A DNA stretch of 64,000 bases from Methylobacterium oryzae (GTDB lineage: Bacteria; Pseudomonadota; Alphaproteobacteria; Rhizobiales; Beijerinckiaceae). The notes beneath the pieces are model-generated. The model worked only from the letters and a program-made list of their open reading frames with translations, searched no databases and was not told the origin of the DNA. Where the stretch lies: positions 1-64,000 of the forward strand of contig NZ_CP090351.1 of the NCBI RefSeq assembly GCF_021398735.1, written 5' to 3'. Position 1 is the stretch's first letter, and each line of letters begins with the position of its first letter. Of this stretch, positions 3 through 62,454 are shown one piece after another. A program made the translations under genes and the position numbers.

Positions 3-95
3 GTGTTCAACTCCCTCCTCTCGGACCTGGACGGCTGGCTCGAGCCGTTCTGCGCGCTGAGTGGAGTCAGCACTGACTTGAAGGCAGCAGCATGA
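3..95 (+). CDS. 3' end of an upstream gene (partial)
   Basis: An open frame enters from the left edge and stops at a TGA that overlaps the ATG of the next gene (ATGA). Its codons end mostly in G or C, like the real genes here, whereas the other two frames do not. The visible tail contains FNSLLSDLDGWLEPF. The last ten codons run through an operator palindrome, so it is also possible that the true gene ends differently. Function cannot be told from 30 residues. Confidence 0.5.
   Translation: MFNSLLSDLDGWLEPFCALSGVSTDLKAAA
64..79 (+). promoter_or_regulatory. Operator palindrome, copy 1
   Basis: GAGTCAGCACTGACTT, a near-perfect match to the window-wide palindrome, 13 bases before the ATG at 92. 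It lies within the end of the upstream frame; no clear -10 box sits next to it. Confidence 0.7.
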
Positions 96-610
96 GCACC
101 CCGAAGAAGGCGCCCCGGGCCCGGACCCCGCAGCAGAACCTGGAGGCCGGCGTCAGCGCCGTCACCCGCTCCATCACCGCGCTCGTGAAGCTGATCGAGC
201 GCAACGGCGAGAAGCTGTCGGCCGAGGACGCCGTGAAGGCCTTCAGCTTCATCGCGGTGGCCAACAACGCCGGGCAGACGAAGGCGCTGGCCGCGGTGCA
301 GGCGGCGAGCCTCGCCAGCTTCTCGCTGGACCGGGCGATCCCCGTGATCGCCGGCGTGCAGCTCGCCACGGCGCCCACGCCCGTGATGCCCGGCTCCCCG
401 CTGAGCCCGATCCCGGCGCCGGCCGCCGCGCGCCCCGCGGGGCGCCCGTCCGTGGACGAGCTCGGCGGCCGGTTCTGCCGCGACGTGCGCGACGCGGCCA
501 AGCGCATCCCGGGCAACGACCGCGGCCTGATCATGTCGGGCAGCGGCGGCGGCAGCGACGACGTCGGCTTCGTGGACGACGACGAGACCCCTGATAGCGA
601 AGAGGAGTGA
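92..610 (+). CDS. Hypothetical protein with acidic tail, upstream of RecA
   Basis: 172 residues. The first half is basic and probably helical; the middle is Pro/Ala-rich linker; the last 30 residues are Gly-rich and then strongly acidic (DDDETPDSEEE). An acidic tail on a small protein encoded directly before a recombinase recalls single-strand-binding or recombination-mediator proteins, but no OB fold or SSB tail can be read, so that is only a guess. It overlaps or abuts recA and is surely co-transcribed with it. Start ATG has an AAGGCAGCAGC ribosome site upstream. Confidence 0.8.
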   Translation: MSTPKKAPRARTPQQNLEAGVSAVTRSITALVKLIERNGEKLSAEDAVKAFSFIAVANNAGQTKALAAVQAASLASFSLDRAIPVIAGVQLATAPTPVMPGSPLSPIPAPAAARPAGRPSVDELGGRFCRDVRDAAKRIPGNDRGLIMSGSGGGSDDVGFVDDDETPDSEEE

Positions 611-615
611 GCACA

Positions 616-1722
616 ATGGCATCGGCAGCAGACATCGCGAAGGCGCTCGAGGGACTGATCGGCGGTAACGACGACGAGGCGACCGTCGCCCACTTCCTGG
701 ACACCGGCTACGCGCCGCTGAACTACGCCCTGTCCTCGCGCTGGGACGGCGGCTTCCCCGTCGGGCGCCAGGTCGAGGTGGCCGGCCCGTCGACCTCGGG
801 CAAGACGGCCATCGCCACCCGCGCCATGATCGCCGCGCAGCGCGCCGGCGGCATCGCCGGGTTCATGGACCACGAGCGCTCGTTCTCGGGCGTGCTCGCC
901 CAGCGGATCGGCCTCGACACCACGCCCGGCCGGTTCCTCTACAAGAAGCCGCGCACCTTCGAGGACAGCCTCACGATCATGGTGCGGGCGGCCGAGCTGA
1001 TCCGCACCAAGAAGCTGATCGCCCCCGAGGCGCCCATCTGCTTCGTGGCCGACTCCCTCGCCTCGATGGTCCCCCAGTCCGCGCTGATCGACATGAAGAC
1101 CGGCAAGGACAAGGACATGACCGACCGGAACATGAACGACAACACGGCGCTCGCCCGCGCCACCTCGGCTCACCTCCCGGCGTTCAACCTCTACATCGAG
1201 GAGCTCGGGGTCTGCGCGATCTTCACCAACCAGATCCGCATGAAGATCGGCGTCATGTATGGCGATCCCCGGAAGACCCCGGGCGGCGAGGCGCCCTACT
1301 TCTACGACAGCCAGAAGCTGATGCTCGGCGCCGCGGCCAAGATCCAGAAGGGCAAGGGCGAGGACGCCGAGGTCCTGGGCGTCGAGGTCTCGGGCGTGGT
1401 CGCCAAGAACAAGGTCGCCCGGCCGTTCCTGCGCGCCACCTGGCGCTTCATGTTCCAGCCCGACGGCTTCGGGAAGTTCGACGTCGAGCGCTCCCTGATC
1501 GAGTTCCTGGTCAAGGAGAAGCTGATGCCCGAGGGCCGGCCGGGCTTCGTGGTCTGGGACGGCAAGCAGATCGCCAAGGAGGCGCTCGCCCGCAAGATCG
1601 AGGCGGCCGGTGCCCTCGAGGAGCTGCACGCGCTGCTGCCCAAGGCCTACGAGCCGCCGGTGGTCGGCGAGGTCGAACTCACGGGCGAGACCGAAGCGGC
1701 CCCGATCGCCGAAGCCGCATGA
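616..1722 (+). CDS. RecA/UvsX-like recombinase
   Basis: 368 residues of the RecA family, the strand-exchange ATPase used for recombination-dependent replication and repair. Walker A GPSTSGKT is at residues 57-64; a Walker B-like strand ending ICFVADS is near 141-147; IFTNQIRMKIGVMYGDP resembles the RecA L2/NQ region, followed by TPGGEAPYFY like the conserved TPGG segment. Length is typical of RecA. ATG at 616 has AGAGGAG eight bases upstream; a GTG at 607 overlapping the previous stop is an alternative start. With SbcCD-like, RuvC-like and UvsW-like genes elsewhere in the window it completes a phage recombination set. Confidence 0.92.
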   Translation: MASAADIAKALEGLIGGNDDEATVAHFLDTGYAPLNYALSSRWDGGFPVGRQVEVAGPSTSGKTAIATRAMIAAQRAGGIAGFMDHERSFSGVLAQRIGLDTTPGRFLYKKPRTFEDSLTIMVRAAELIRTKKLIAPEAPICFVADSLASMVPQSALIDMKTGKDKDMTDRNMNDNTALARATSAHLPAFNLYIEELGVCAIFTNQIRMKIGVMYGDPRKTPGGEAPYFYDSQKLMLGAAAKIQKGKGEDAEVLGVEVSGVVAKNKVARPFLRATWRFMFQPDGFGKFDVERSLIEFLVKEKLMPEGRPGFVVWDGKQIAKEALARKIEAAGALEELHALLPKAYEPPVVGEVELTGETEAAPIAEAA

Positions 1723-1818
1723 GCTCGATGCGGCGCCTCATCGTCGGTTGAGGCGCCCATCGCACTTTCACCCCGACTCGCGCGACGCTACGTTTCTACC
1801 CAGAAGGGAAACTGTGTC

Positions 1819-2280
1819 GTGCGTGTCATCTCCGTTTGGAACCCCTATGCGTCGCTCCTGGTGCATGGGCACAAGCTCGTCGAAACCCGGGGTTTCCCCG
1901 CGCCCAAGGGCCTGATCGGTCAGCGGATCGGCATCGCGTCGACCAAGATCGTCCGGCCCGAGCAGCGCGACGCGATGAAGGACCCGGTCTTCGCCCGCTA
2001 CTACTTCGAGACCAACCTGCCTCGTGACATCGAGGAGCTGCCGAATGGCTACCTCCTCGGCACCGTGCTGTTGCACTCGTGCGAGCCGATCAGCGAGGAG
2101 GACCTCGAGGACGTGACGGAGGAGGAGAAGGTCTACGGCTGGTGGACGGAAGGGCGCTACGCCTGGCGCGTCCGCGAGCCTGACGCCTTCGACGATCCGG
2201 TGCCGGTCCGGGGCGCGCAGGGAATTTGGACCCTGCCCGATGCTGTCGTGCTCCCCTTCCCCCGAACCCAGGCTGCTTGA
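1819..2280 (+). CDS. ASCH-domain protein
   Basis: 153 residues. The N-terminus RVISVWNPYASLLVHGHK followed by KLVETRG is the ASCH/PUA-like signature (W.PYA..i..G.K..E.R). ASCH domains are small beta barrels thought to bind RNA or modified nucleotides; phage members have no agreed role. GTG start at 1819 preceded by AGAAGGGA nine bases upstream; an ATG is not available in frame. The 3' end overlaps the next gene by 41 bases in another frame. Confidence 0.75.
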   Translation: MRVISVWNPYASLLVHGHKLVETRGFPAPKGLIGQRIGIASTKIVRPEQRDAMKDPVFARYYFETNLPRDIEELPNGYLLGTVLLHSCEPISEEDLEDVTEEEKVYGWWTEGRYAWRVREPDAFDDPVPVRGAQGIWTLPDAVVLPFPRTQAA

Positions 2281-3644: not shown

Positions 3645-3668
3645 GCTATAATCAGTCAGCAATGACAC
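3645..3668 (+). promoter_or_regulatory. Promoter and operator, copy 2 (sbcD operon)
   Basis: A -10 box TATAAT at 3647-3652 abuts the palindrome AGTCAGTCAGCAATGACACA (core GTCAGCAATGAC 3655-3666). The ATG inside the palindrome opens an eight-codon frame that ends in ATGA on the next gene start, possibly by chance. Confidence 0.75.
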
Positions 3669-3684
3669 ACGCACAGAAGGCGAC

Positions 3685-4752
3685 ATGACCTACGGCCTCC
3701 TCTCCGACATCCACGCGCACGCCTGGTCAGCCTTCTCGACCCGGCTGCCGTGCGGCCGCAACTCGCGGCTCCAGATCATCGTGGACGAGCTGAAGCGGGC
3801 GGCCATCGACACCCGGGACGCCGGCGGCGATCTGCTGGTGTTCGGCGGCGACCTCTTCCACACCCGCGGCTCGCTCGACCCGGAGGTGTTCAACCCCGTC
3901 ACCGAGGCGATCAAGGAGCTGCTCGCCGACGGCTTCCGCATCGTGGCGATCCCGGGCAACCACGACCTCAAGTCGAACGAGACCACGGAGCTCGGCAACG
4001 CATTCCAGTCGCTCAAGGGCACGCAGGGCTTCGGCATCGTCACCCAGCCGAAGCTCCTGGACAGCCTGCCGCTGGCGATGGTGCCGTGGATCCCGAAGCT
4101 CGACGACCTCAAGGCCGTGCTCGAGGCGCTCGCGGAGGAGGCGGTGCGCCGGGGCAGCCTGGGTCAGACCGACCTGATCATGCACGCCGGCATCGACGGC
4201 GTCCTGTCGGGCATGCCGGCCCACGGGCTGACCCCGGACTACCTGGTCAAGCTCGGCTTCCGGCGCGTGTTCGCCGGCCACTACCATCACCACTGCTCGT
4301 TCGAGGACGGCAAGGTCTGGTCGATCGGCGCGACGACGCACCAGACGGCGAGCGACATCGGCACCAAGGCCGGGTTCCTGCTGGTGGACGACTCCGGCGT
4401 CGCCTACCGCGCCAGCCGGGCACCCGAGTTCGTCGAAGTCTCGGACGAGACCGACCCGGACGAGATCCCGAACGTGGTCGACGGCAACTACGTCCGGGTG
4501 CGCGGGCTCAAGCTCTCCGAGGCCGACGAGGTCAACCTGCGCGAGGAGCTGATCCGGCTCGGGGCCAAGGGCGTCGTCATGAACGTCGAGCGCCAGACCA
4601 CAAGCGCCCGGGCGTCGGCGCCGTCGGTGAAGGCCAAGAGCCTCGAGGCGTCGGTGGCCGACTACATCGAGCGCCAGGCCTCGCCGCACATGGACGCCGT
4701 GAAGACCCAGGCCGCGGCGATCATCTCGGCTGTTCGCGCCGCCACAGAATAA
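3685..4752 (+). CDS. SbcD/Mre11-like nuclease (phage gp47 type)
   Basis: 355 residues, metallophosphoesterase family. The metal-binding motifs can be read in order: D-x-H in LLSDIHAHAW (residues 6-14), GGDLFH near 52-57, GNHD near 92-95, HAGID near 167 and GHYHHH near 196-201. In T4 the equivalent gp47 works with gp46 as an exonuclease that processes DNA ends. The SbcC-like partner lies two genes downstream in the same operon, as in other phages. Start ATG follows AGAAGGCG. Confidence 0.92.
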   Translation: MTYGLLSDIHAHAWSAFSTRLPCGRNSRLQIIVDELKRAAIDTRDAGGDLLVFGGDLFHTRGSLDPEVFNPVTEAIKELLADGFRIVAIPGNHDLKSNETTELGNAFQSLKGTQGFGIVTQPKLLDSLPLAMVPWIPKLDDLKAVLEALAEEAVRRGSLGQTDLIMHAGIDGVLSGMPAHGLTPDYLVKLGFRRVFAGHYHHHCSFEDGKVWSIGATTHQTASDIGTKAGFLLVDDSGVAYRASRAPEFVEVSDETDPDEIPNVVDGNYVRVRGLKLSEADEVNLREELIRLGAKGVVMNVERQTTSARASAPSVKAKSLEASVADYIERQASPHMDAVKTQAAAIISAVRAATE

Positions 4753-4815: not shown

Positions 4816-5214
4816 ATGAGCCAGTATTTCAAGATCACTTACGTCCGCAAGCAAGTCATCACTGACTATTTGCCCGGCGGCGCGACCCGCGAGGTCACGC
4901 GCGAGATCGAGGAGACGATCGGCGGCCTGCCCGGCTCGACGGTCGCGAACTACCGTCGGGTGCTGGGCGACCAAATCCGCCGGGTCGAGGCCGAGGCGGT
5001 GGAGCCGAGCGTGGCGCACAAGGGCCGGCGTCCGTCCGCAGGCGCCCGGCAGGCGTTCGGCCTGGGCGCGGCACCCGAGGGCTACGCCCCGAGCCCGGAG
5101 CGCGGCACGTCCATCCACACCGGCAAGGCGCCGGCGGCCACCGAGACCGAGAACGATCCGTTCGGCGTCTCCTACGCCGACGTCGTCAACGCGATGGTCG
5201 AGAAGGCAGCCTGA
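4816..5214 (+). CDS. Hypothetical protein between sbcD- and sbcC-like genes
   Basis: 132 residues, no recognised family. The N-terminal half (YFKITYVRKQV, then charged helix) may be an ordered domain; residues 70-110 are Pro/Gly/Ala-rich and the last part, NDPFGVSYADVVNAM, is helical. The stop overlaps the next start (TGATG). Position inside the nuclease operon suggests a role in DNA-end processing or replication, by context only. Confidence 0.8.
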   Translation: MSQYFKITYVRKQVITDYLPGGATREVTREIEETIGGLPGSTVANYRRVLGDQIRRVEAEAVEPSVAHKGRRPSAGARQAFGLGAAPEGYAPSPERGTSIHTGKAPAATETENDPFGVSYADVVNAMVEKAA

Positions 5215-9436: not shown

Positions 9437-9460
9437 TGCTGAAAATTGCTGCCGCTCTAG

Positions 9461-10279: not shown

Positions 10280-10445
10280 CCGGCGCTCTGAGTCCCACAA
10301 GCCGCGCATCCGTTCCGGATCCGTTCACGTTAGCATAACCTTGCTAGATGAGGAAGTTAGGACCCAGACGCCCTCAGATCGGCAGGATCGCAGTCAGAGC
10401 CTCGGATCAGCCTCGCATTTCTTTATCAAAGACCGGGCATCAATC

Positions 10446-10473
10446 GCTATAGAGTGTATGTCAGCACTTACTT
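10446..10473 (+). promoter_or_regulatory. Promoter and operator, copy 3
   Basis: TATAGA at 10448-10453 is followed by palindrome copy TGTCAGCACTTACTTC (core 10460-10471, one mismatch in the right arm), 13 bases before the next start. Confidence 0.7.
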
Positions 10474-10485
10474 CACGGGTCGGAG

Positions 10486-20949: not shown

Positions 20950-21235
20950 GCCCGATCCCCTGAACGACTTCCTCGATATCGAGGCTGGACGAAACCCGCG
21001 CTACGCCAGCTCGGTTTACCTCGCGTTCGAGCGGGGCATCCTCCGGGCGCCCGGCTCGCTCATCAATCTGACCTGGTGGCCCCTCGTCACCATGCTGTCG
21101 GGCTTCGCCTTCCTGATCGTGGGCCTCGCTCTGTGGGTGCTGATCCGCCTGCACTTCGTGGTGTTCGGTCTGCTGGGTCATCTACGCCCGAAGTCTGCCC
21201 AGGGCAGTAAGTCAGTGCTGAGTTCCCACCGATGA
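20939..21235 (+). CDS. Small membrane protein
   Basis: 98 residues. A hydrophilic N-terminus of about 40 residues precedes a long hydrophobic stretch (PLVTMLSGFAFLIVGLALW, then VLIRLHFVVFGLLG), enough for one or two membrane segments. The only suitable start is TTG at 20939 with AGGAG seven bases upstream. Its last codons run through operator copy 8. Role unknown. Confidence 0.6.
   Translation: MPRKPDPLNDFLDIEAGRNPRYASSVYLAFERGILRAPGSLINLTWWPLVTMLSGFAFLIVGLALWVLIRLHFVVFGLLGHLRPKSAQGSKSVLSSHR
21209..21224 (+). promoter_or_regulatory. Operator palindrome, copy 8
   Basis: AAGTCAGTGCTGAGTT, core 21211-21222, one mismatch; inside the 3' end of the membrane-protein gene and eight bases before the next start. 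Confidence 0.6.
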
Positions 21236-22294: not shown

Positions 22295-22341
22295 TTGCAA
22301 TCCCCGAAGTCGCCTCACTATAGATAAGTCACTGCTGACTG
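22295..22341 (+). promoter_or_regulatory. Promoter and operator, copy 9
   Basis: The clearest promoter of the set: TTGCAA (22295-22300), 18-base spacer, TATAGA (22319-22324), one base, then AAGTCACTGCTGACTG (core 22328-22339). The palindrome would cover the transcription start. Confidence 0.8.
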
Positions 22342-22380
22342 AGTCCGACGCCTTCCACCAGTAGAACAATCAGGAAAGTC

Positions 22381-30262: not shown

Positions 30263-30309
30263 CACGCGCCACATATCCACAGCGCATCCACAGCCAACAA
30301 GGAGACCTC

Positions 30310-44708: not shown

Positions 44709-44970
44709 GAGGCGGGGTGTGGCGGCATTACCGCCACTGTGGCGGCTGCGTTGCCACATGGCTTCCCAGCCACACCCGTCTCCGCGGAGATCCGCGCGCC
44801 CGTCGAGTGGCTTTCCAGCCGACCTCACAGATTTCCCATCCCATGCACAAGTATTCCACGCGGCGAAAAAAGATCAGTCCCCGCTGATTTTCCTCGGGAA
44901 AGCGCTTGCTCCCCCGCCGCCCCCGAGTATTCTACAGAAGTCATCACGACACACAGAGAAAGACACAGAC

Positions 44971-45705: not shown

Positions 45706-45761
45706 GCAACCGCCCCGGGGGCGTGCGACAAGTAGTCATCAACAGAGCGACGGAGCAGACG

Positions 45762-47591: not shown

Positions 47592-47864
47592 CTACCTGTC
47601 GGGCACCGGGTATGTGTCCCGGTAGTGCTGCATGGCCGCCTGGAACAGCTCCTTGTGCTTCATCTTCCGCTTGGCCGCCTCGAGGATGAACTCGTCGCGC
47701 TCGTCCTCGGTCAGCTTGAAGGAGAGGTCCACCCAGCGCTTCTGGTTCGAGGTGGTCATGTTCTGGGGCGCCTCGCCCCGGGCCGGCACGGCGTGCGCCA
47801 GGCGGCCTGCGGGCTTCTCGTCCTTGGGAGGCGGGGGCGGTGCGGACAGGCGGGGGCGGCTCAT
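47592..47864 (-). CDS. Probable ribbon-helix-helix partner of ParA
   Basis: 90 residues. A Pro-rich basic tail of about 45 residues precedes KRWVDLSFKLTEDERDEFIL and a helix, the layout of a ribbon-helix-helix dimer such as ParG/Omega: flexible N-terminus, one strand, two helices. Its start overlaps the parA stop (ATGA). In type Ib partition systems this protein binds the centromere and stimulates ParA. Assignment rests on position and fold pattern. Confidence 0.65.
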   Translation of the reverse strand: MSRPRLSAPPPPPKDEKPAGRLAHAVPARGEAPQNMTTSNQKRWVDLSFKLTEDERDEFILEAAKRKMKHKELFQAAMQHYRDTYPVPDR

Positions 47865-48508
47865 CTCTTGGTCCCTGCGAGCTCGGTGAAGCGGTCGATG
47901 ATCTCTTGCGCGAGCGCGTCGGCCCGCTCGTTGAGGCTCGGATACTGGCTCTCGTTGATCGCGCGCCCCTGGTTCTGGGCGAGCTGGTAGCCGGTCTTCA
48001 CCGGCAGGTCGGTCGCGGCGCAGCGGTAGCCGGCGGCCTCGATGAAGCCCTTGGCGTCGGCGATCGAGGCCGCGCTGTCGAGCGTCTTGTTCAGGACGAA
48101 CAGGATGTCGGACCGCTCCACGCCGCGCTGGAGCAGCTCGTGGGCGAACTTCACCTGCGGGCTCAGGTCGTCGAGCGTCACCTGGGCCGGGATCAGGATC
48201 AGATCGCTCTCCCGGGCGATCTCCAGCGTGATGGTGTCGGAGTCGGGTTTCCCGTCGAACACCATGAGGTCGTATTGGGTCTGCTGGGTCAGCGCCTTCT
48301 TGACGTTGGCGAAGGCCTCGGCCGGCACCTCGGGCGTCAGCTCGTTCTTCAGCCGGTGCCCGGCCCAGTCCACGCTGGTGAGCTGCTTCACGTTGAAGTC
48401 GGCGAGCTTCACGCGCCAGCCGACCCCGGCGTAGGCCGTGGCCATCAGCCGGGCGATCGTGGATTTGCCTACCCCTCCCTTCTGGGAGAGCACGGCGAGG
48501 GTCTTCAT
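47861..48508 (-). CDS. parA: ParA-family partition ATPase
   Basis: 215 residues. Deviant Walker A KGGVGKST at 10-17 with the signature lysine, switch-type MVFDGKPDSDT near 82-92, LILIPAQVTLDDL near 104. Length and lack of an N-terminal helix-turn-helix match type Ib ParA of plasmids. It positions DNA in the cell before division; in a phage it points to plasmid-like lysogeny or to nucleoid localisation. Here FDGKPDS replaces the usual D.P.. pattern slightly. Confidence 0.88.
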   Translation of the reverse strand: MKTLAVLSQKGGVGKSTIARLMATAYAGVGWRVKLADFNVKQLTSVDWAGHRLKNELTPEVPAEAFANVKKALTQQTQYDLMVFDGKPDSDTITLEIARESDLILIPAQVTLDDLSPQVKFAHELLQRGVERSDILFVLNKTLDSAASIADAKGFIEAAGYRCAATDLPVKTGYQLAQNQGRAINESQYPSLNERADALAQEIIDRFTELAGTKR

Positions 48509-49580: not shown

Positions 49581-49696
49581 CGCCGGCCCTCCTCCATGAG
49601 CGCGCCTGCCTCCCGGGACACGGCTGTCCAGTAGGCGAGGGTGAGGGCGTTCGAGGTCGTGACCGACCGCAGCCAGAAGTCGAACCAGCGAATCAT
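49574..49696 (-). CDS. Very small protein
   Basis: 40 residues (MIRWFDFWLRSVTTSNALTL...). Overlaps both neighbours by four to seven bases in a coupled operon, GC-rich codons. Amphipathic aromatic N-terminus; function unknown. Confidence 0.5.
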   Translation of the reverse strand: MIRWFDFWLRSVTTSNALTLAYWTAVSREAGALMEEGRRC

Positions 49697-50286
49697 CACG
49701 CGGCCTGCTTGGTGACGCGGGTCAGCCAGTCGGCGCGCCGGGCGTGCAGGTCCTGGAGCGCGGCGAACACCGCCTTCTCGAGGGTGCGCAGGCAGCGGCC
49801 GTCGTTCTCGATCGTGAGGTCGACGACAGATCGGTCGTATCGGTCGAACTCGTAGGGGGAGGGGCCCGCGTTCGGGTTGGTGATCTCGATCACCACGCCG
49901 CCGCGCTCCTGGTAGTAGCGGCCCTGGTCGCGCCGGACCGAGCCGAACGAGAAGTGCCCGGGCCGGCCCGCGACCTGGCGCTCGGTGAGGAAGGGCATCG
50001 CGTGGGGCCCGAGCAGGTCCTCGAGGCGGTTGCCGATCTGGCCGAGCAGGTCGCGAACGACCCAGTCCTTGCCGGCGAGGCTCACGGTCTCGCGCTTACC
50101 GGTCTGGGTGCGGACCTGGTCCCAGGTCAGACCCATGTGCTCGACGGCGATCGAGCGGATCGCGTGCCCGTCGTCGACCGGGGCGACGCCGTAGTCGCGC
50201 CGCAGGATCTCCTGGACGGTGCTCTTGCCCGAGAGCGGGTTGCCGCACAGGGCGACGTAGCGGGGGAGGGTGATCGCGTGGGTCAT
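49696..50286 (-). CDS. P-loop kinase
   Basis: 196 residues from the ATG at 50286. P-loop LCGNPLSGKST near 12-22; DDGHAIRS and DRSVVDLTIEND are later conserved blocks as in dNMP kinase-like proteins. Might phosphorylate a nucleotide or nucleic acid end. The ATG abuts operator copy 20 and has no ribosome site; a GTG at 50316 with AAGGG upstream is an alternative start that would place the operator inside the gene. Confidence 0.72.
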   Translation of the reverse strand: MTHAITLPRYVALCGNPLSGKSTVQEILRRDYGVAPVDDGHAIRSIAVEHMGLTWDQVRTQTGKRETVSLAGKDWVVRDLLGQIGNRLEDLLGPHAMPFLTERQVAGRPGHFSFGSVRRDQGRYYQERGGVVIEITNPNAGPSPYEFDRYDRSVVDLTIENDGRCLRTLEKAVFAALQDLHARRADWLTRVTKQAA

Positions 50287-50300
50287 GTCAGCACTGACTG
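50285..50300 (-). promoter_or_regulatory. Operator palindrome, copy 20
   Basis: ATGTCAGCACTGACTG, core 50287-50298, directly against the start codon of the minus-strand kinase gene. Confidence 0.65.
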
Positions 50301-50352
50301 ATGGCTCCGGGCGCACTAAGCCCTTGGTGAACAACAAGGAAAACCGCCGCCG

Positions 50353-50576: not shown

Positions 50577-52268
50577 TCAGGCTGCGCGCTTCGTCGCCGA
50601 AACGAGGTGCCACGGGTGATCGGCACCCGATTTCAGGATCCCCTCGCGGAAGCCGTCGGTGCCCTCGATGATCCCGCGGCGCTCCCGGGCGTGACCCTGC
50701 AGGTGACTGTTCGGGCCGGTCGAGTAGTCCGAGACGAAGAAGATGTTGGCGCCCGTCTTCTTGCGGCGCGCGCCGCGGCCGATCCGCTGCCGGAGCGCGA
50801 CCTCGGCCTTGCCGCCGCCGGCGAGCTGCACCAGGCCGACGGCCGGCACGTCGACGCCGACGTCGAGGATGGTCGTGCCAATCAGGACGTCGATCTCGCC
50901 CCGGGCGAGCTGGTCCAGCGCCCGCTTGCGGGCCTTCTGGTCGTCCTCGCCCTTCAGGAACACGACGCGCAGGCCGACCGCGCGCATGGCGTGGGCGAGC
51001 ACATCGCCGTGGGCGGTGCGCTGGATCAGCGTCATCACTGGCTGGCCGAGCGCGGCCGCCTTCTTCGCCTCGGCCACGATCGCGGCGTGCATGGGCACGT
51101 TGTTGACGTAGCCCATCGCGTAGGCGCGCTGGTAGGGCGTCGACTTGAACAGACCCTTGGGCGTCGGGGTGTCGACGAACCGGAAGTAGGGCTTGGCCAG
51201 GATCCCCTTGTCGATCAGCTCCTTCTCCGTGACCTGGATCAGGATCGGGCCGAAGGCGGCCATCAGGCGCATGTTGTCGGCCGCGTCCGCACGCATGAAC
51301 GGGGTCGCGGTCAGCGCCAGGCGGTAGCGGGCGTTGCGGCAGTGGCGCAGGATCTCGAAGTAGCTGGTGCCGCCGACCTCGTGGGCCTCCTCGCCGATCA
51401 CCAGCTCGATCATCTCGAGGAACTTGATGGTGCGCGCCCGCAGGGTCATCTGCTGGATCGCGCGCCGGGAGGCCTCGTGCGCCATCGCCTCGTCGCTCGG
51501 CCGGGCGTCGATCTGCTCGTTCTCCAGCTTGTCGAGCGCCAGGCTGATGTCCCGGGGCTTGGCGCCGTCGCGCTTCATCCGGGCCTTGAGCGCGGCCCGG
51601 GCCTTCTCCTCGGCGGCCGCGCGGCGCTCGACGCCCTTGATGAGCTCCTTGGAGACGTCGGTCTCCTCGAGCCGGGCGACCAGGGTCTGCACCATCGCGC
51701 AGTTCACGCCCCGGACCGGGCTCCACTCGCCGTCACCGATCAGCCCGACCTTGAAGCCGGCGTCCCGGAAGCCGTCGGCCATCTGGTGCATGAGCACGCC
51801 GCGGGTGGTGATGAACAGCGTGGGCCGGCGGATCCGGGCGACCGCGAGCTTGGCGATCTTCGACTTGCCACCGCCGGTGGCGATCTGGGCGATCCCGCGC
51901 CCGTGGCGCAGGAGCTGCCGGATCGTGCGCATCTGGTAGTCGTAGTCGGGATTGTCGTTGCCGAAGGCGTCGACCTGCGGATCCTCGGGCCCGAGCGGCT
52001 CGGGCAGGGGCTTCTTCACGACGTGGACGCGGTGGCCGGCCCGGACCAGCTCCGAGTGCAGCAGGTGCGCGAAGCCCGCGGGGAAGGTGCCGCGCAGGTT
52101 CGAGAAGAACGACGAGCGCCCGTTCCACTGGCCGTTGCCGGCGCCCGAGAACTCGGCGCCCTCTACCACGTAGGAGAGCGTCTTGTGGGCGATCGCCTTC
52201 ACCGCCTTCGACGGGTTCACGAGCTGGGCGTTCACGGTGCCCACGGCCATCTGGACCAGATCAGTCAC
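50577..52268 (-). CDS. SF2 DNA helicase (UvsW-like)
   Basis: 563 residues. Q-type YQMR (111-114), motif I TGGGKS (131-136), motif II written GEEAHE near 296 instead of DEAH/DECH, motif III LALTATPF near 320, and motif VI QRIGRGARRK near 513. UvsW unwinds branched and R-loop DNA and restarts forks in T4; with RecA-, RuvC- and SbcCD-like genes this fits recombination-dependent replication. GTG start beside a weak operator copy; about 60 residues before the Q motif are family-specific. Confidence 0.88.
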   Translation of the reverse strand: MTDLVQMAVGTVNAQLVNPSKAVKAIAHKTLSYVVEGAEFSGAGNGQWNGRSSFFSNLRGTFPAGFAHLLHSELVRAGHRVHVVKKPLPEPLGPEDPQVDAFGNDNPDYDYQMRTIRQLLRHGRGIAQIATGGGKSKIAKLAVARIRRPTLFITTRGVLMHQMADGFRDAGFKVGLIGDGEWSPVRGVNCAMVQTLVARLEETDVSKELIKGVERRAAAEEKARAALKARMKRDGAKPRDISLALDKLENEQIDARPSDEAMAHEASRRAIQQMTLRARTIKFLEMIELVIGEEAHEVGGTSYFEILRHCRNARYRLALTATPFMRADAADNMRLMAAFGPILIQVTEKELIDKGILAKPYFRFVDTPTPKGLFKSTPYQRAYAMGYVNNVPMHAAIVAEAKKAAALGQPVMTLIQRTAHGDVLAHAMRAVGLRVVFLKGEDDQKARKRALDQLARGEIDVLIGTTILDVGVDVPAVGLVQLAGGGKAEVALRQRIGRGARRKKTGANIFFVSDYSTGPNSHLQGHARERRGIIEGTDGFREGILKSGADHPWHLVSATKRAA

Positions 52269-52318
52269 GGCTTACTTTTTCCCGTCGTTGGCATTGACAA
52301 GTCAGTCAGCACTGACTT
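52262..52318. promoter_or_regulatory. Divergent control region with operator copy 21 and a weak copy
   Basis: AAGTCAGTCAGCACTGACTTA (core 52305-52316) lies between the helicase and ParB-like genes; a degraded copy GTCACGGCTTAC (52264-52275) overlaps the helicase start. TTGACA at 52295 may be a -35. Confidence 0.65.
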
Positions 52319-52331: not shown

Positions 52332-53051
52332 ATGCAACCCAACTCGCTCCAGGTCTCGCCTACCGAGCTCCGGCCGAACCCGTGGAACTCCAACCACGTC
52401 GCGCCGGACAACGAGGGCAAGCTCATCGCCTCGATCCGCGAGCGCGGCATCGTGCGCCCGATCCTGGTGCGCGAGACCGACGACGGGTTCGAGATCCTGG
52501 GCGGCGAGCACCGCTGGCGCTGCGCCTCCGATCTGGGCCTGGCCACCGTGCCGGTGCTCAACTTCGGCCGGGTCAGCGACGACGAGGCCAAGAAGATCGG
52601 GCTGATCGACAACGTCCGATACGGCGAGGACGATGCGAGCGAGCTCGCCGCCCTGCTGCGGAGCTTGGACGATGTCGAGGGCTTCCAGGAGACCATGCCG
52701 TTCACAGACCAGGAGATCACGTCGATCTTCTCGTCTTCGACTATAGCGCTGGAGGACTTGGATTTAGACGAGTCCGAGTCCGAACCCGCGCCGGAAGACG
52801 ATCATCCGGTCGCCGCGGCCCCGAAGACGCACGCCATGATGCGCTTCCAGGTGCCGCTGGCCGACGCGGAGCGCCTGACCGACCTCATCACCCGGACGTG
52901 CAAGCGCCAGGGCTTCGAGGCGGCCACCGCCCTCATGAACGCGGGCGACGCGCTCTGCTTCCTCCTCCTCGGCTCCGCAGCGCCCCCAGTGCCCGGCGCC
53001 GAGGAGGAGACGGAGATCCCCGAGGCCGACAGCTTCGGAGAGCCGCTGTGA
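52332..53051 (+). CDS. ParB-like nuclease/CTPase-domain protein 1
   Basis: 239 residues. ParB N-terminal domain at 1-100: LRPNPWNSN, LIASIRERGIVRPILV and the signature GGEHRWRCA (57-65). A C-terminal helical part follows an acidic linker. Phage ParB-domain proteins often accompany DNA-modification or packaging genes rather than partition; the ABC/GNAT genes downstream support this. ATG at 52332; longer in-frame starts upstream are shadow. Confidence 0.85.
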   Translation: MQPNSLQVSPTELRPNPWNSNHVAPDNEGKLIASIRERGIVRPILVRETDDGFEILGGEHRWRCASDLGLATVPVLNFGRVSDDEAKKIGLIDNVRYGEDDASELAALLRSLDDVEGFQETMPFTDQEITSIFSSSTIALEDLDLDESESEPAPEDDHPVAAAPKTHAMMRFQVPLADAERLTDLITRTCKRQGFEAATALMNAGDALCFLLLGSAAPPVPGAEEETEIPEADSFGEPL

Positions 53052-53909: not shown

Positions 53910-53912
53910 GTT

Positions 53913-53928
53913 AAGTCAGGACTGACAC
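53913..53928 (+). promoter_or_regulatory. Operator palindrome, copy 22
   Basis: AAGTCAGGACTGACAC, core 53915-53926, five bases before the ATG at 53933; the short gap suggests a transcript start inside or just before the palindrome. Confidence 0.65.
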
Positions 53929-53932
53929 GCCC

Positions 53933-56702: not shown

Positions 56703-56718
56703 AAGTAAGTGCTGACTG
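56703..56718 (+). promoter_or_regulatory. Operator palindrome, copy 23 (terminase operon)
   Basis: AAGTAAGTGCTGACTGG region, core 56705-56716, one mismatch. The small terminase GTG at 56709 is inside the palindrome. Confidence 0.55.
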
Positions 56719-57392: not shown

Positions 57393-58689
57393 CGCTGCCG
57401 CCCTGCTGCCCGGGCTCGGCGGCGCACCGGCGCACGAGTTCACGCTCCACCGCGGCCAGTCGACGGTGTTCAAGGACCCGCGCCGTGTGCGCGTGGTCGT
57501 GGCCGGCCGGCGCTGGGGCAAGACGCAGCTCGCGCGCATCCTCGCGGTCCGGGCGGCCGCGGCCAAGACCAAGCAGCTCATCTGGTATGTGGCCCCGACC
57601 TACGGGATGGCCCGCTCGATCCTCTGGGACGAGCTGAAGGACTCCATCCCGAAGAAGTGGATCCGCTCGATCAACGAGACCCGGATGACCGTCCGGCTGC
57701 GCAACGGCTCACGCATCGAGCTGAAGGGCGCGGACAAGCCCGACAGCCTGCGCGGCGTCGCGCTGAACCTGGTGATCGTCGACGAGGCCCAGGACATCGA
57801 GCCCGACACCTGGTTCAAGGTCCTCTACCCGACGCTGACCTCGACCCGCGGTGAGGCGATCATCATCGGGACGCCCAAGGCCTACAACTGGCTCTACGAC
57901 GTCTACATGAAGGGCCAGCGCGGCGAGACCTACCGCGACAGCAAGGGCCGGCTGCGCAAGAACGACCACAAGTCCTGGCAGTTTCCGACGATCACCTCGC
58001 CGTTCATCCCGCTCGAGGAGATCGCGGCCGCGCGCCAGAACATGGACGAGAAGTCGTTCCGCCAGGAGTTCGAGGCGAGCTTCGAGACCATGTCGGGGCG
58101 CGTCTACTACGCCTTCGACCGCAACATCCACGTCGGCGACTACGCCTTCAACCCACACCTGCCGATCTGGGTGGGCCAGGACTTCAACATCGACCCGATG
58201 TCCTCGGTCATCATGCAGCCGCAGGACAACGGCGAGGTGTGGGTGGTCGGCGAGGCGATCCTGTTCAACTCGTCCACCGCCGAGGTCTGCCTCGAGCTCG
58301 ACCGGCGCTACTTCAAGCAGCAGAAGTCGGTCATCATCTTCCCCGACCCGGCCGGCGCGCAGCGCGGGCACGGCCGCGGCGAGAGCGATCTCGACATCCT
58401 GCGCCAGGGCGGCTTCCGCAAGCTCCAGTATAAGCGCAAGCACCCGCCCGTGGCCGACCGCGTCAACGCGGTGAACCGGATGCTCAAGGCGGCCGACGGC
58501 GTGGTGAAGCTGCGGGTCGACCGGAGCTGCAAGCACGTCATCGCGGGCTTCGAGCAGACCATCTACAAGCCGGGCACCCGCGAGGTGGACAAGTCGCAGG
58601 GCGTCGAGCACCCGATGGACGCGATCGGCTACTGCATCGACTTCAAGTTCCCGGTCCGGCGGATCAGCGTGCTGGGCGTCTCGGTCTGA
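57385..58689 (+). CDS. terL: Large terminase subunit
   Basis: 434 residues. ATPase half: Walker A-like GRRWGKT (41-47) and Walker B LVIVDEAQD (about 129-137). Nuclease half: GQDFNIDPMS near 264, FPDPAGAQRG near 315 and HPMDAIGY near 412 supply the RNase H-like acidic residues. It pumps DNA into proheads and cuts the concatemer. The best anchor for the packaging module. Confidence 0.94.
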   Translation: MTSAAALLPGLGGAPAHEFTLHRGQSTVFKDPRRVRVVVAGRRWGKTQLARILAVRAAAAKTKQLIWYVAPTYGMARSILWDELKDSIPKKWIRSINETRMTVRLRNGSRIELKGADKPDSLRGVALNLVIVDEAQDIEPDTWFKVLYPTLTSTRGEAIIIGTPKAYNWLYDVYMKGQRGETYRDSKGRLRKNDHKSWQFPTITSPFIPLEEIAAARQNMDEKSFRQEFEASFETMSGRVYYAFDRNIHVGDYAFNPHLPIWVGQDFNIDPMSSVIMQPQDNGEVWVVGEAILFNSSTAEVCLELDRRYFKQQKSVIIFPDPAGAQRGHGRGESDLDILRQGGFRKLQYKRKHPPVADRVNAVNRMLKAADGVVKLRVDRSCKHVIAGFEQTIYKPGTREVDKSQGVEHPMDAIGYCIDFKFPVRRISVLGVSV

Positions 58690-58699
58690 GGTTGCAGAC

Positions 58700-58715
58700 A
58701 AGTCAGCGCTGACTT
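58700..58715 (+). promoter_or_regulatory. Operator palindrome, copy 24 (portal)
   Basis: CAAGTCAGCGCTGACT, core 58702-58713, a perfect palindrome, 46 bases before the portal start. Confidence 0.7.
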
Positions 58716-58760
58716 ATCATTGTGGCCCCAGACCCCTGCAATCGGTGAGGCGCGCGGAAC

Positions 58761-60392
58761 ATGCTCTCTGGAGCCAGTCAGAAGCAGCTCCAGGAGTTCC
58801 TGAAGCGGCGCCATCCCGAATACGAGAACCGGATCAAGCACTGGAACTTCCTCGAGGCGACCTACGAAGGGTCGCGCGACTGGTTCAAGGCCAACATCCA
58901 CAAGTATCTCAAGGAGGGGCGCAAGGAGTTCAACGACCGTGTGGCGCGGGCCTACCGCTTCAACCACACGCGCGAGATCGTGGAGCTCGTCCAGAAGTAT
59001 CTCTTCAAGGGCGACGTCGTGCGCAAGGACGACGCGCCCGACTACGTCAAGACCTTCTGGAAGGCCTCGACCCGCTCCAACCTCAACATCGACCAGTTCA
59101 TCCGCCTGGTGTCCTCGACCACCTCGCAGCTCGGGCGCTGCGCGGTGTTCGTCGACTCCACGAAGACCGACGCGACGCTGACCAAGGCCGATGAGAAGAA
59201 GGCCGGCGCCCGGGTCTACGCCTACATCGTCAAGCCCCAGAACATCCTGGACTACGGCTTCGACGACGACGACGGCGAGCTGCTCTGGATCCTGGTCGCC
59301 GAGACCTACCGGGACGACAAGGACCCGATCACGGCCACCGGCAAGGTCAAGGTCCGCTACCGGCTCTGGACCCGCACCAACTGGTATCTCTTCGAGGTCA
59401 ACACGACCCGGGGCGGCAACGCGCGCGTCGACCAGACCGGCGACGGCGAGGTCGCGATCGGCCGCGTGCCATGCTTCTTCGCCGACCACCTGATCGGCGA
59501 GAACCTCTACTGGGCGCCGGGCCTGATCGACGAGATCGCCTACCTGGACCGGGCGACCGCGAACTACCTGTCGAACCTCGACGCCATCATCCAGGACCAG
59601 ACCTTCTCCCAGCTCGCGATGCCGGCCCAGTCGGTGCTGCCGGGCGAGAAGGGCTACGACGCGCTGATCGAGGCCGGCACCAAGCGGACCTTCCTCTACG
59701 ACAGCGAGGGCGGTGAGCCGAAGTTCCTGTCGCCGGATCCCAAGCAGGCGCAGCTCATCATCACCGTTATCAACAAGATCATCGCCGAGATCTACCAGAC
59801 GGCCGGCGCGAGCGGTGAGCGGACCAAGCAGGACAACGCGGTCGGGATCGACAACTCCTCGGGCGTGGCCAAGGCCTACGACTTCGACAAGCTGAACTCG
59901 CTGCTCACCTCGAAGGCGCAGTCGCTCCAGCAGGTCGAGAACAAGATCGTGGAGCTGGTCGCGCTCTGGACCGGCGAGACGCCCCCGGAGGAGAACCTCG
60001 TCTCCTACCCCGAGACCTTCGACGTCCGCTCGCTGTTCGACGAGTTCACGGTCGCCCAGAACCTCGCGCTCATGGACGCGCCGCAGACGGTGCGCGCCGA
60101 GCAGATGAAGCAGGTCATCGAGAAGCTGTTCCCGGGCATCGCCAAGGCGATCAAGGACAAGATGCTCGACGAGCTGAAGGATTGGCCGAAGGACCCGATC
60201 GAGCAGGCCCGGCTGATGTTCAACGCCACGTCGCCGGCCGCCGGCGCCGAGGGCGAGAGTTTGACCGCGAGCCGCAGCAACGCGCCGCCCACGGCCTCCA
60301 AGACTTCCGGGCAGTCCGACACCAAGAAGACCTCGACGAAGGGTCGGCAGGGTCAGGTGACGGACAAGACCCAGAAGAAGACCGCGGCCTGA
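58761..60392 (+). CDS. Portal protein
   Basis: 543 residues, right length and position for a portal. Helical with a long stem region; repeated conserved phrases (YLFKGDVVRKDDAP, FIRLVSSTTSQLGRCAVFVD, PQNILDYGFDD, KQDNAVGIDNSSGVAKAYDFDKLNSLL) match phage portal patterns, including the last, which is close to portal core helices. Twelve copies should form the DNA gate at one capsid vertex. Start ATG at 58761. Confidence 0.88.
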   Translation: MLSGASQKQLQEFLKRRHPEYENRIKHWNFLEATYEGSRDWFKANIHKYLKEGRKEFNDRVARAYRFNHTREIVELVQKYLFKGDVVRKDDAPDYVKTFWKASTRSNLNIDQFIRLVSSTTSQLGRCAVFVDSTKTDATLTKADEKKAGARVYAYIVKPQNILDYGFDDDDGELLWILVAETYRDDKDPITATGKVKVRYRLWTRTNWYLFEVNTTRGGNARVDQTGDGEVAIGRVPCFFADHLIGENLYWAPGLIDEIAYLDRATANYLSNLDAIIQDQTFSQLAMPAQSVLPGEKGYDALIEAGTKRTFLYDSEGGEPKFLSPDPKQAQLIITVINKIIAEIYQTAGASGERTKQDNAVGIDNSSGVAKAYDFDKLNSLLTSKAQSLQQVENKIVELVALWTGETPPEENLVSYPETFDVRSLFDEFTVAQNLALMDAPQTVRAEQMKQVIEKLFPGIAKAIKDKMLDELKDWPKDPIEQARLMFNATSPAAGAEGESLTASRSNAPPTASKTSGQSDTKKTSTKGRQGQVTDKTQKKTAA

Positions 60393-61389: not shown

Positions 61390-61414
61390 AACCCCTTGCG
61401 TGGTGCAAAAAAGT

Positions 61415-61430
61415 CAGTCAGTGCTGACTG
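61415..61430 (+). promoter_or_regulatory. Operator palindrome, copy 25
   Basis: CAGTCAGTGCTGACTG inside AAGTCAGTCAGTGCTGACTG, core 61417-61428, in the gap before the capsid gene. Confidence 0.7.
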
Positions 61431-61461
61431 ATTTTGCTTGGCGACGAGTCCCGTGCCGGAT

Positions 61462-61487
61462 ATCCTATTGTAAGTCACCGCTGACTT
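61462..61487 (+). promoter_or_regulatory. Promoter and operator, copy 26 (major capsid)
   Basis: TATCCTATTGTAAGT then TAAGTCACCGCTGACTTA (core 61474-61485). Two operators, 57 bp apart, guard the capsid gene. Confidence 0.65.
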
Positions 61488-61523
61488 ATGCCCGGCACGG
61501 GCAGTCGCCAAGGAGAATTGGGA

Positions 61524-62426
61524 ATGCCCCTGCTTGTGGAAGAGGCCGCGAAGCTGAGCGTCGATCAGCTCGAGCGCGGCATCATCGAAGAGATCATCGT
61601 CCAGGACGACCTGTTCGCCCTGTTCCCGTTCGTCCACGTCAACGGCAAGGCCTACGACTACATTCGTGAGGCCACGCTGTCCGAGGGCGCGTTCCTCGAC
61701 CCCTACGAGGACATCACCGAGGGCGCCGCGACCTTCGAGGAAGTGCAGGCCAAGCTGCGCATCCTGGCTGGCCACGTCGACCTGGACAACTTCCTGGTCG
61801 AGACCCAGTCCGACACCCAGGACCAGCTCGCCGTGCAGCTCGCCGCCAAGGCGAAGGCCCTCGGCATGCAGTTCCGTCGGACGCTGGTGAACGGCGACAC
61901 CACGAAGAACCGCAAGGAGTTCGACGGCGTCAAGGCGCTGGTTCCGGCCAAGCAGACCCTGATCGCCGGCGCCGACGGCGCGGCCGTCTCCTTCACCATG
62001 CTCGACGAGCTGCGTGACGCGGTCATCGGCGGCGCCGACGTGCTCATGATGCGCAAGGGCACCTGGCGCTCGATCAAGGCGCTGCTGCGCGCCATGGGCG
62101 GCAACGACGCCGGCACGATCATCGTCAAGGACTTCGGCAAGGCGCTGCCGGCGTTCGATGGGACCCCGGTCATCATCAACGACTACATCACCGCCGACGA
62201 GGTCCAGGGCGCGTCGACCGCCTCCACCTCGATCTACGCCCTGCGCCTCAACGAGGTCGACGGCATCCACGGCCTCTACGGCGGCGCCACCGCCGGCCTG
62301 CGGGTCGAGGAGATCGGCAAGCTCGAGGGCAAGGACGCCCAGCGCTGGCGCCTCAAGTGGTATTGCGGCACGGCCCTGAAGCGCACGACCTCGGTGGCCC
62401 GTCTCAAGGGCGTGACCAACATCTAA
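61524..62426 (+). CDS. Major capsid protein
   Basis: 300 residues from the ATG at 61524, which follows AAGGAGAATTGGGA. A helical N-arm (VEEAAKLSVDQLERGIIEEI), a long beta-rich E-loop (EATLSEGAFLDPYEDITEG), helix AVQLAAKAKALGMQFRRTLVNG and the end block GIHGLYGG...VARLKGVTNI fit the HK97 fold of capsid proteins. Place between scaffold and head genes agrees. Own promoter with two operators and a terminator after it, as expected for the most abundant protein. Confidence 0.85.
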   Translation: MPLLVEEAAKLSVDQLERGIIEEIIVQDDLFALFPFVHVNGKAYDYIREATLSEGAFLDPYEDITEGAATFEEVQAKLRILAGHVDLDNFLVETQSDTQDQLAVQLAAKAKALGMQFRRTLVNGDTTKNRKEFDGVKALVPAKQTLIAGADGAAVSFTMLDELRDAVIGGADVLMMRKGTWRSIKALLRAMGGNDAGTIIVKDFGKALPAFDGTPVIINDYITADEVQGASTASTSIYALRLNEVDGIHGLYGGATAGLRVEEIGKLEGKDAQRWRLKWYCGTALKRTTSVARLKGVTNI

Positions 62427-62438
62427 GGTCTCGACAAT

Positions 62439-62454
62439 AAGTCACCACTGACTT
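62439..62454 (+). promoter_or_regulatory. Operator palindrome, copy 27
   Basis: TAAGTCACCACTGACT, core 62441-62452, after the capsid stop and before its terminator, as copy 18 lies before its own. Confidence 0.65.

What the first reader, a model, noticed from the sequence alone, without database searches (positions are those of the whole stretch)
64..62454. A 16-bp palindrome repeated at least 27 times forms a phage-wide operator network
Copies close to AAGTCAGCACTGACTT lie before nearly every operon, from recA to capsid. In copies 2, 10, 12 and 15 a TATA-type -10 box ends exactly at the palindrome, and in copies 3, 5, 7 and 9 it is 1-5 bases away, so the palindrome sits over the transcription start. 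Two copies (18, 27) lie after a gene and before its terminator. This resembles the stoperator sites of mycobacteriophage L5, but the sequence is symmetric and placed at promoters. One repressor could silence the whole phage. Copies range from perfect to one or two mismatches, giving graded affinity.
Basis: partly seen in the sequence, partly recalled or inferred. Interest (0 to 1): 0.85.

Follow-up and report, generated by a model that had tools for sequence, protein, structure and literature searches.

The report
Phage-plasmid-wide repressor operator network
A virus that lives in its bacterial host as a plasmid carries about fifty copies of one short mirror-image DNA word, mostly in front of its viral genes, probably so that a single switch protein can keep them off; related viruses keep the switches in the same places but have changed the spelling of the word.

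Summary
The window is the first 64 kb of a 116,758-bp contig that is an SSU5/RHEph10-type phage-plasmid. It holds 28 copies within 4 mismatches; 25 of these lie within 3 mismatches, where shuffles give 0.2. A matrix finds 50 on the contig. 38 of 44 copies lie between genes, and many overlap promoter elements. The likely binder is outside the window: a lambda-repressor-type HTH protein at contig 102308-102760. Eleven records with a clear homologue each have 38-68 matrix sites. In E. coli Cyrano the (weak) homologue is the published putative repressor. Pseudomonas phage nickie lacks both the gene and these palindromes. Operator positions are conserved at orthologous genes although the spelling differs (AGTCA here, AGTAA in Rhizobium phages B1VFA and X66), in parallel with recognition-helix residue 44. 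No site lies within 400 bp upstream of repC (9 genomes) or parA (10). Best reading: one autoregulated lysogeny repressor silences most phage operons, like P1 C1 but with symmetric promoter operators. Binding and repression are inferred. New variant of a known kind.

The parts
63..80 (.). operator, upstream of gene 92-610 and recA-like gene 616-1722
   Evidence: 22.0 bits; RecA PF00154 in 616-1719
3652..3669 (.). operator before SbcD-like nuclease gene 3685-4752; TATAAT ends on its first base
   Evidence: 19.9 bits; phrog_100
4852..4869 (.). operator-like site just inside called gene 4816-5214
   Evidence: 16.0 bits, called coding; 2 of 4 orthologs also have a site
10457..10474 (.). operator before 10486-11010
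   Evidence: 21.3 bits
11640..11657 (.). operator before ribonucleotide reductase-like gene 11695-14205
   Evidence: 23.8 bits; PF21995
15038..15055 (.). operator before 15120-15350; -10-like hexamer just upstream
   Evidence: 28.9 bits
16291..16308 (.). operator before 16319-16594
   Evidence: 23.0 bits
19604..19621 (.). operator before 19698-20075
   Evidence: 25.8 bits; 5 of 7 orthologs have a site
21208..21225 (.). operator near the end of 20939-21235, 7 bp before 21232-21543
   Evidence: 19.7 bits, called coding
22325..22342 (.). operator before 22381-23364; TATAGA ends next to it
   Evidence: 26.7 bits
28094..28111 (.). operator before SLT-domain gene 28139-28738; CTGACA and TATAGT upstream
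   Evidence: 28.9 bits; PF01464
30620..30637 (.). operator before 30651-31061
   Evidence: 23.3 bits
32144..32161 (.). operator before 32179-32718; TATAGT ends on its first base
   Evidence: 23.8 bits
32997..33014 (.). weak operator-like site
   Evidence: 15.8 bits
34921..34938 (.). operator upstream of 35109-35342
   Evidence: 24.2 bits
35011..35028 (.). second operator before 35109-35342
   Evidence: 20.2 bits
35386..35403 (.). operator before 35419-35814
   Evidence: 21.0 bits
36243..36260 (.). operator upstream of 36433-37848
   Evidence: 20.2 bits
36391..36408 (.). operator before 36433-37848
   Evidence: 25.1 bits
37851..37868 (.). site 3 bp after gene 36433-37848, followed by a terminator-like hairpin (stoperator-like)
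   Evidence: 17.2 bits; hairpin and T-run
44874..44891 (.). weak operator-like site before 44971-45579
   Evidence: 12.6 bits
45689..45706 (.). only exact copy of the 16-mer in the window; a 51-aa ORF at 45723-45878 follows in one gene call only
   Evidence: 28.2 bits; exact match; ORF called, not
50284..50301 (.). operator at start of leftward kinase-like gene 49696-50286
   Evidence: 23.4 bits; phrog_139; 7 of 8 orthologs have a site
52261..52278 (.). operator in the divergent helicase / ParB-like promoter region
   Evidence: 17.0 bits
52302..52319 (.). operator between helicase (50577-52268, -) and ParB-like gene (52332-53051, +)
   Evidence: 28.9 bits; a site at 9 of 9 orthologs of each gene
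53912..53929 (.). operator before 53933-54379
   Evidence: 18.8 bits
56702..56719 (.). operator at the called start of 56709-57392, the gene before terminase large subunit 57385-58689
   Evidence: 23.7 bits, called coding; 10 of 10 orthologs have a site
58699..58716 (.). operator before portal gene 58761-60392
   Evidence: 28.5 bits; 9 of 10 orthologs have a site
61414..61431 (.). first of two operators before major capsid gene 61524-62426
   Evidence: 27.0 bits
61471..61488 (.). second operator before major capsid gene 61524-62426
   Evidence: 28.8 bits; 8 of 10 capsid orthologs have a site
62438..62455 (.). site 12 bp after the capsid gene, before a terminator-like hairpin and gene 62518-62781
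   Evidence: 28.5 bits; hairpin; 3 of 6 orthologs of the next gene have a site
47861..48508 (-). parA: plasmid gene outside the network, no site within 400 bp upstream
   Evidence: 58% identical to pAMS5a ParA; no site at any of the 10 parA genes found
52332..53051 (+). ParB-like protein, rival binder; itself behind an operator
   Evidence: only PF02195 matched at E <= 0.1

Best explanation
The palindromes are operators of one autoregulated lysogeny repressor, the lambda-repressor-type HTH protein at contig 102308-102760, near the plasmid replication gene repC. A dimer binds the 18-bp palindrome, which overlaps or adjoins the -10/start region, the spacer or the -35 of many phage promoters, and blocks RNA polymerase. 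This holds replication, packaging, capsid and tail genes off while the element lives as a plasmid; repC and parA lack operators and stay on. Shown by sequence: number and placement of sites, overlap with -10-like boxes, co-occurrence with the HTH gene, a conserved site map, a site upstream of the HTH gene in most genomes, none near repC and parA. Inferred: that this protein binds, that binding represses, dimer binding, and how induction happens.
For: Counts and chance. Promoter overlap is directional: 57 of 171 oriented sites (C3, pAMS5a, G400, Faunimonas) have a -10-like hexamer starting at -10..-4, against a shuffled-flank mean of 14.1 (max 26 in 200) and 14 in the reverse orientation. Co-occurrence: of 397 family genomes only the window's own (21 matches) and G361 (13) have a motif cluster, the other 395 have 0-2; the same two have the portal at high similarity (two others have weak hits, E 1e-8 and 2e-5), and both have the HTH homologue. 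De novo palindromes are strong in 11 of 11 analysed records with a clear HTH homologue (statistic 104-308; null maxima up to 12.4). nickie, without it, has none of six palindrome classes and a weak, different best word (16.4; nulls 5.6). Cyrano's weak homologue (25%, E 4e-7) is CYRAN_45 'putative repressor', listed among prophage genes at 10-fold above background in PMC9928086 Table 1, whose footnote speaks of master repressors of lysogeny (passages). A site lies 44-230 bp upstream of the HTH gene in 10 of 11 genomes by matrix; in the 11th, pAMS5a, the record ends there and its rotated copy G401 has a motif 197 bp beyond the match. No site within 400 bp upstream of repC (9 of 9) or parA (10 of 10). 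Map conservation: C3 vs G400 33 both, 5 C3 only, 4 G400 only, 65 neither (p 6e-18); C3 vs B1VFA 14, 6, 4, 37 (p 3e-6). Spelling: exact AGTCA/AGTAA palindromes 28/0 in C3, 0/31 in B1VFA, 0/30 in X66, with residue 44 K, R or Q versus N. HTH_3 above cut-off.
Against: No binding or expression data. HTH relatives on four other plasmids or plasmid stretches (33-41% identical) have no palindrome of this type (one has a different palindrome 55 bp upstream). G405 has a palindrome network (74.7) but no homologue found by the search, only an HTH-like protein at the syntenic place. In G361 a strict pattern shows two sites downstream of the HTH gene and none in 1.5 kb upstream; it was not matrix-scanned. 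In C3 one site lies 97 bp upstream of the small gene that precedes repC, so repC there may not be fully exempt (0 of 6 orthologs of that gene have one). The spelling is not absolute: 5 of 44 C3 sites have the A/T form in one half, and RHEph10 and Pararhizobium sites mix forms. The residue-44 link rests on few lineages; in a four-genome test ParB, portal and most other genes group the genomes as the HTH protein does. Matrices were trained on intergenic DNA. The G408 matrix is weak, and its map overlap (p 0.045) and G403's (p 0.009) are marginal. The joint promoter scores had no control, and the -10 weights were recalled.
Confidence: 0.86

Rival explanations
1. The sites are centromere-like ParB sites spread over the genome, as with the dispersed SopB sites of N15 (recalled), serving partition and only incidentally near promoters.
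For: Two ParB-like genes in the window; a 16-18-bp palindrome is a plausible parS shape (recalled).
Against: A ParB homologue is in 14 of 15 records, including nickie (none of these palindromes), Cyrano and G405 (other palindromes), and is not found in the G403 record, which has a network. Neither ParB-like protein matched an HTH family at E <= 0.1. Sites are phased to -10-like boxes. parA has no site.
Confidence: 0.04
2. The binder is the small ribbon-helix-helix (CopG-type) protein beside repC, not the HTH protein.
For: BLAST finds it in 7 of 14 records, all with a network, and not in nickie.
Against: Not detected in G400, Pararhizobium, G403, G408, Cyrano or G405 by that search, although those have networks; other searches do find a relative in Pararhizobium. 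Only C3 has a site near its gene, 0 of 6 orthologs do, whereas the HTH gene has one upstream in 10 of 11.
Confidence: 0.06
3. The sites act mainly as stoperators: the repressor bound within or after operons blocks elongation, as in L5-type phages.
For: Two copies follow a gene and precede a terminator-like hairpin; six matrix sites are called coding.
Against: Most C3 copies are intergenic and shortly before a gene, and a third of 171 sites have a sense-oriented -10-like box next to them; the sites are symmetric.
Confidence: 0.08
4. The palindrome is an activator or phage-sigma promoter element that turns genes on in the lytic cycle.
For: A phage sigma-like gene is found in 11 of 14 records and, like the HTH gene, not in nickie.
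Against: It is not found in Cyrano or G403, which have networks. The site-to-(-10) distance takes several values (-9, -5, +16), unlike a fixed promoter element. The gene that tracks the sites is a repressor-type HTH with a site of its own.
Confidence: 0.05

Closest known systems
P1 C1 repressor and its dispersed operators (PMC8546580, passages)
   Same: Phage-plasmid prophage; one repressor; many operators (22) dispersed over the genome that repress lytic genes; C1 acts at its own promoters.
   Different: P1 operators are a 17-bp asymmetric consensus; here an 18-bp palindrome, about 50 copies, and a lambda-type HTH protein as candidate. Homology to C1 was not tested.
Cluster A (L5-clade) mycobacteriophage Rep and stoperators (PMC6550527, passages)
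   Same: As many as 30 dispersed repressor sites whose motif differs between phages along with the repressor.
   Different: L5-clade sites are mostly not promoter-associated, run predominantly in one orientation and block elongation; these are symmetric and mostly before genes.
SSU5-type phage-plasmid Cyrano of E. coli LF82 (PMC9928086, passages)
   Same: Related portal; weakly homologous putative repressor CYRAN_45; own dispersed palindrome.
   Different: Half-site and spacing differ (about ATAAGTANNTACTTAT); the passages seen name no operators.
RHEph10 / pLM21S1 plasmid-like prophages of rhizobia (PMC4447125, passages)
   Same: RHEph10 has the order repC - small gene - HTH - small gene - cobT - cobS and about 37 dispersed palindromes.
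   Different: Operator spelled about TCAATCAAT; gp041 is annotated only as hypothetical; the passages seen mention no operators.

Membership tests
SSU5/RHEph10-type phage-plasmid | Related portal, terminase and capsid genes on a ~100-120-kb element | tested here: met
   Portal 53-54% identical to RHEph10, Cyrano and Acinetobacter elements, 69% to pAMS5a; contig of 116,758 bp; TerL, portal and capsid PHROGs. Circularity was not tested
SSU5/RHEph10-type phage-plasmid | Plasmid replication and partition genes | tested here: met
   RepC 67% and ParA 58% identical to pAMS5a
Lambda/434/P22-type HTH repressor domain | Cro/C1-type HTH (PF01381) above the curated cut-off, lambda-repressor-like fold | tested here: met
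   25.2 bits against cut-off 23 (the pAMS5a homologue itself had no Pfam hit); Foldseek hits to lambda repressor and P22 C2 at E 0.002-0.02, none at 0.001 or below
LexA/CI self-cleaving repressor | C-terminal S24 peptidase domain | tested here: not met
   Only HTH families matched; model helical throughout
P1 C1-type operator network | Many operators dispersed over a phage-plasmid | tested here: met
   About 50 sites
P1 C1-type operator network | Asymmetric 17-bp operator | tested here: not met
   18-bp palindrome
P1 C1-type operator network | Repressor homologous to C1 | not tested
   No C1 comparison was run
L5-type stoperators | Asymmetric sites, mostly not at promoters | tested here: not met
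   Palindromic; 38 of 44 intergenic; -10-like boxes beside a third of sites
L5-type stoperators | Block transcription elongation | not testable with these tools
   Needs reporter or transcript data
ParB centromere (parS) sites | Presence follows the ParB protein | tested here: not met
   ParB in 14 of 15 records, including nickie, which has none of these palindromes

The most novel reading that the evidence does not exclude
SSU5/RHEph10-type phage-plasmids share an ancestral repressor regulon whose map of some 40-60 promoter operators is kept over very long times while the operator word itself is rewritten across the whole genome (AGTCA, AGTAA and TCAAT forms) in step with one recognition-helix position (residue 44: K, R or Q versus N). 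Absence of the repC-HTH cassette, as in nickie, goes with absence of the operators. The group would be a natural series of regulatory code changes with intermediates: 5 of the 12 Shinella sites listed (chosen genes) have one half of each spelling.
Probability: 0.6. Interest if true: 0.75.

Novelty: new variant of a known kind. Interest (0 to 1): 0.64.

Why it matters
The searches made here turned up little on how SSU5-type phage-plasmids hold their lytic genes off. This gives a candidate repressor, its operator, the genes it should control and the genes it spares, in a widespread group. It also offers a case of how a repressor and dozens of binding sites change together, testable with natural proteins and natural sites.

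Tried and rejected
ParB as binder: rejected on its distribution. RepC as binder: its identities group RHEph10 with B1VFA (70%), while the operators group RHEph10 with Pararhizobium. The same test gives the HTH protein's grouping for the other nine proteins compared (RHH, sigma, CobS, ParA, ParB1, ParB2, portal, TerL, DnaE), so it is no specific evidence for the HTH protein.

Repressor relatives on small plasmids (Lichenihabitans, Cereibacter, Gemmobacter) and in a 49-kb stretch of a large Ruegeria plasmid: looked for matching palindromes to link motif and protein outside phages; none of this type.

Whole-sequence palindrome counts gave TCGACGA-type words in most records, nickie included; I judged them a codon effect (not tested) and then restricted to intergenic DNA with shuffles.

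Gene calls are from my own simple caller, which misses genes of unusual composition (for example 7593-10309), so intergenic fractions are approximate.

SOS control: an exact GTTC-N7-GTTC box lies 108-133 bp upstream of a conserved ~90-aa gene in C3, pAMS5a and G400 and 21 bp upstream in Shinella; the other four orthologs have no exact box (Pararhizobium one with a mismatch). 4 of 8, kept as a lead only.

No Rfam family at gathering threshold in the window. Literature searches (open-access PMC only) listed no paper that, by title or start of abstract, describes dispersed palindromic operators in this group; I saw passages of five papers and the listings of the rest.

Full report
What the element is. 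The window is contig C3:1-64000 of an unnamed 6.65-Mb genome in 5 contigs; C3 is 116,758 bp. Its portal is 69% identical to that of plasmid pAMS5a of Methylobacterium sp. AMS5 and 53-54% to Rhizobium phage RHEph10, E. coli Cyrano and Acinetobacter elements. It has RepC and ParA homologues and TerL, portal and capsid genes. I take it as a phage-plasmid of the SSU5/RHEph10 type; PMC9928086 calls Cyrano close to SSU5 (passages).

The palindrome. 28 copies at up to 4 mismatches lie in the window, 25 places at up to 3, where shuffles give 0.21. On the whole contig 44 copies at up to 3 mismatches, 38 of them intergenic although 18% of the sequence is. The matrix finds 50, 31 of them in the window. 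The unit is about 18 bp, T[A/C]AGTCA[G/C]NN[C/G]TGACT[T/G]A; 5 of 44 sites have the TTACT form in the right half. All 13 exact matches of the 12-base core in the genome are on C3.

Position on promoters. Among 43 oriented C3 sites, -10-like hexamers cluster at offset -5 (9 sites, ending on the first palindrome base) and +16 (6 sites); pAMS5a and G400 add offset -9. In Faunimonas 20 of 37 sites have a -35-like TTGACT in the right half, which its consensus contains anyway. For 171 sites of four genomes, 57 have a -10-like hexamer starting at -10..-4, against 14.1 with shuffled flanks and 14 in the reverse orientation. A bound protein would cover or adjoin the start, spacer or -35. Two C3 sites, 37851 and 62438, lie after a gene and before a terminator-like hairpin.

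Relatives. Of 397 genomes of the family, two have a cluster of the motif (21 and 13 matches; the other 395 have 0-2), and they are the same two with a close portal. I analysed 14 phage or phage-plasmid records, whole or nearly so (G403 is an 85-kb record, perhaps a fragment). De novo search of intergenic DNA gives a dominant palindrome in C3, pAMS5a, G400 (probably Methylorubrum, from the name given), Faunimonas contig G402, G403, G408, RHEph10, B1VFA, X66, Pararhizobium p5 and Shinella (statistic 104-308; null maxima 5.0-12.4), weaker in Cyrano (57) and G405 (75), and only a weak, different word in Pseudomonas phage nickie (16.4; nulls 5.6). Exact AGTCA-4-TGACT palindromes: C3 28, pAMS5a 40, G400 34, G402 17, G403 22, G408 5, RHEph10 3, Pararhizobium 3, Shinella 1, B1VFA and X66 0. 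Exact AGTAA-4-TTACT: B1VFA 31, X66 30, Shinella 9, G405 8, the others 0. RHEph10 and Pararhizobium have TCA[A/G]TCAAT-like arms.

The repressor. pAMS5a's XRE-family gene has a homologue at C3 102308-102760, between repC and a cobT-like gene. It matches Pfam HTH_3 above cut-off; the pAMS5a protein does not match Pfam at E 0.1 but matches PHROG regulator families. The AlphaFold model (pLDDT 83.6, pTM 0.59) is helical, and its best Foldseek matches are C.AhdI and lambda-repressor-type domains, none at E <= 0.001. In the 15 records homologues are found in 12, not in nickie, G405 and G413. The Cyrano hit (25%, E 4e-7) is CYRAN_45, 'putative repressor', listed at 10-fold above background in PMC9928086 Table 1 (passages). 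In nickie's annotation the ligase is followed by one small gene and cobT, where RHEph10 has repC, a small gene, the HTH gene and another small gene before cobT. G405 has an HTH-like protein near its cobT-like gene, not tested against Pfam.

Regulon map. With a site counted if centred from -130 to +45 of a start, C3 and its reciprocal-best orthologues agree: G400 33 both, 5 C3 only, 4 G400 only, 65 neither; pAMS5a 28/5/4/60; Faunimonas 16/5/4/39; RHEph10 13/6/3/35; Pararhizobium 16/3/2/38; B1VFA 14/6/4/37; X66 15/5/3/38; Shinella 17/4/6/34; G403 7/6/3/22 (p 0.009); G408 11/4/13/18 (p 0.045). Sites stand before the helicase/ParB-like divergent pair (9 of 9 orthologues each), the gene before TerL (10 of 10), portal (9 of 10) and capsid (8 of 10). 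For nine chosen genes the sequences are listed: C3 and B1VFA use different spellings at the same promoters. repC (9 of 9) and parA (10 of 10) have no site within 400 bp upstream; in C3 alone one site lies 97 bp upstream of the small gene before repC. The HTH gene has a site 44-230 bp upstream in 10 of 11 genomes, and pAMS5a in its rotated copy; in G361 a strict pattern shows only downstream sites.

Code change. Recognition-helix residue 44 (C3 numbering) is K or R in C3, G400, G402, G361, G403, pAMS5a and G408, and Q in RHEph10, Y2_11 and Pararhizobium; these have TCA-type half-sites where measured (not measured for Y2_11). It is N in B1VFA, X66, R. beringeri, Shinella and Cyrano; TAA-type half-sites were measured for B1VFA, X66 and Shinella, and a related GTA-type word in Cyrano, none for R. 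beringeri. This is correlation over few lineages, and most other genes share the same grouping.

Judgement. The arrangement works like the P1 C1 system (22 dispersed operators, PMC8546580) and, in how the motif changes with the repressor, like L5-clade stoperators (PMC6550527). It fails the asymmetry of the P1 operators and the mainly non-promoter placement of stoperators. I file it as a new variant of the dispersed-operator kind. What is missing is any experiment.

Noticed in passing
window 7593-10309: Genes 7593-8867 (+) and 9464-10309 (-) match PADLOC candidate defence families PDC-M30A/B and PDC-M41A/B (E 1.5e-26 and 5.6e-58); the second is DUF5131. The matrix finds no site between 4852 and 10457, so this locus lies outside the network.
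   Followed up: partly
window 18163-19449 (-): Protein with a HEPN/Toprim N-terminal domain (PF18871, E 3.1e-52), possibly a defence gene; no PADLOC hit.
   Followed up: no
window 30177-30582: LexA-type box GTTC-N7-GTTC 133 bp before a 90-aa gene without a Pfam hit; the box is also exact in pAMS5a, G400 and, nearer the start, Shinella, not in four other orthologs. Candidate SOS-controlled antirepressor.
   Followed up: partly
L003 6894-7142 (contig 102893-103141): 82-aa gene right after the repressor with homologues in pAMS5a and G400; a site before it in all three. A possible modulator of the repressor.
   Followed up: no
window 43518-44384 and 44971-45579: Likely paralogues: the pAMS5a homologue of each also hits the other at about 30% identity; no Pfam family for the first.
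   Followed up: no
L127 6690-7019 and 8008-9105: G405 has an HTH-like gene and an integrase-like gene beside its cobT-like gene, where relatives carry the repC-HTH cassette (labels from my reading, no family search).
   Followed up: no
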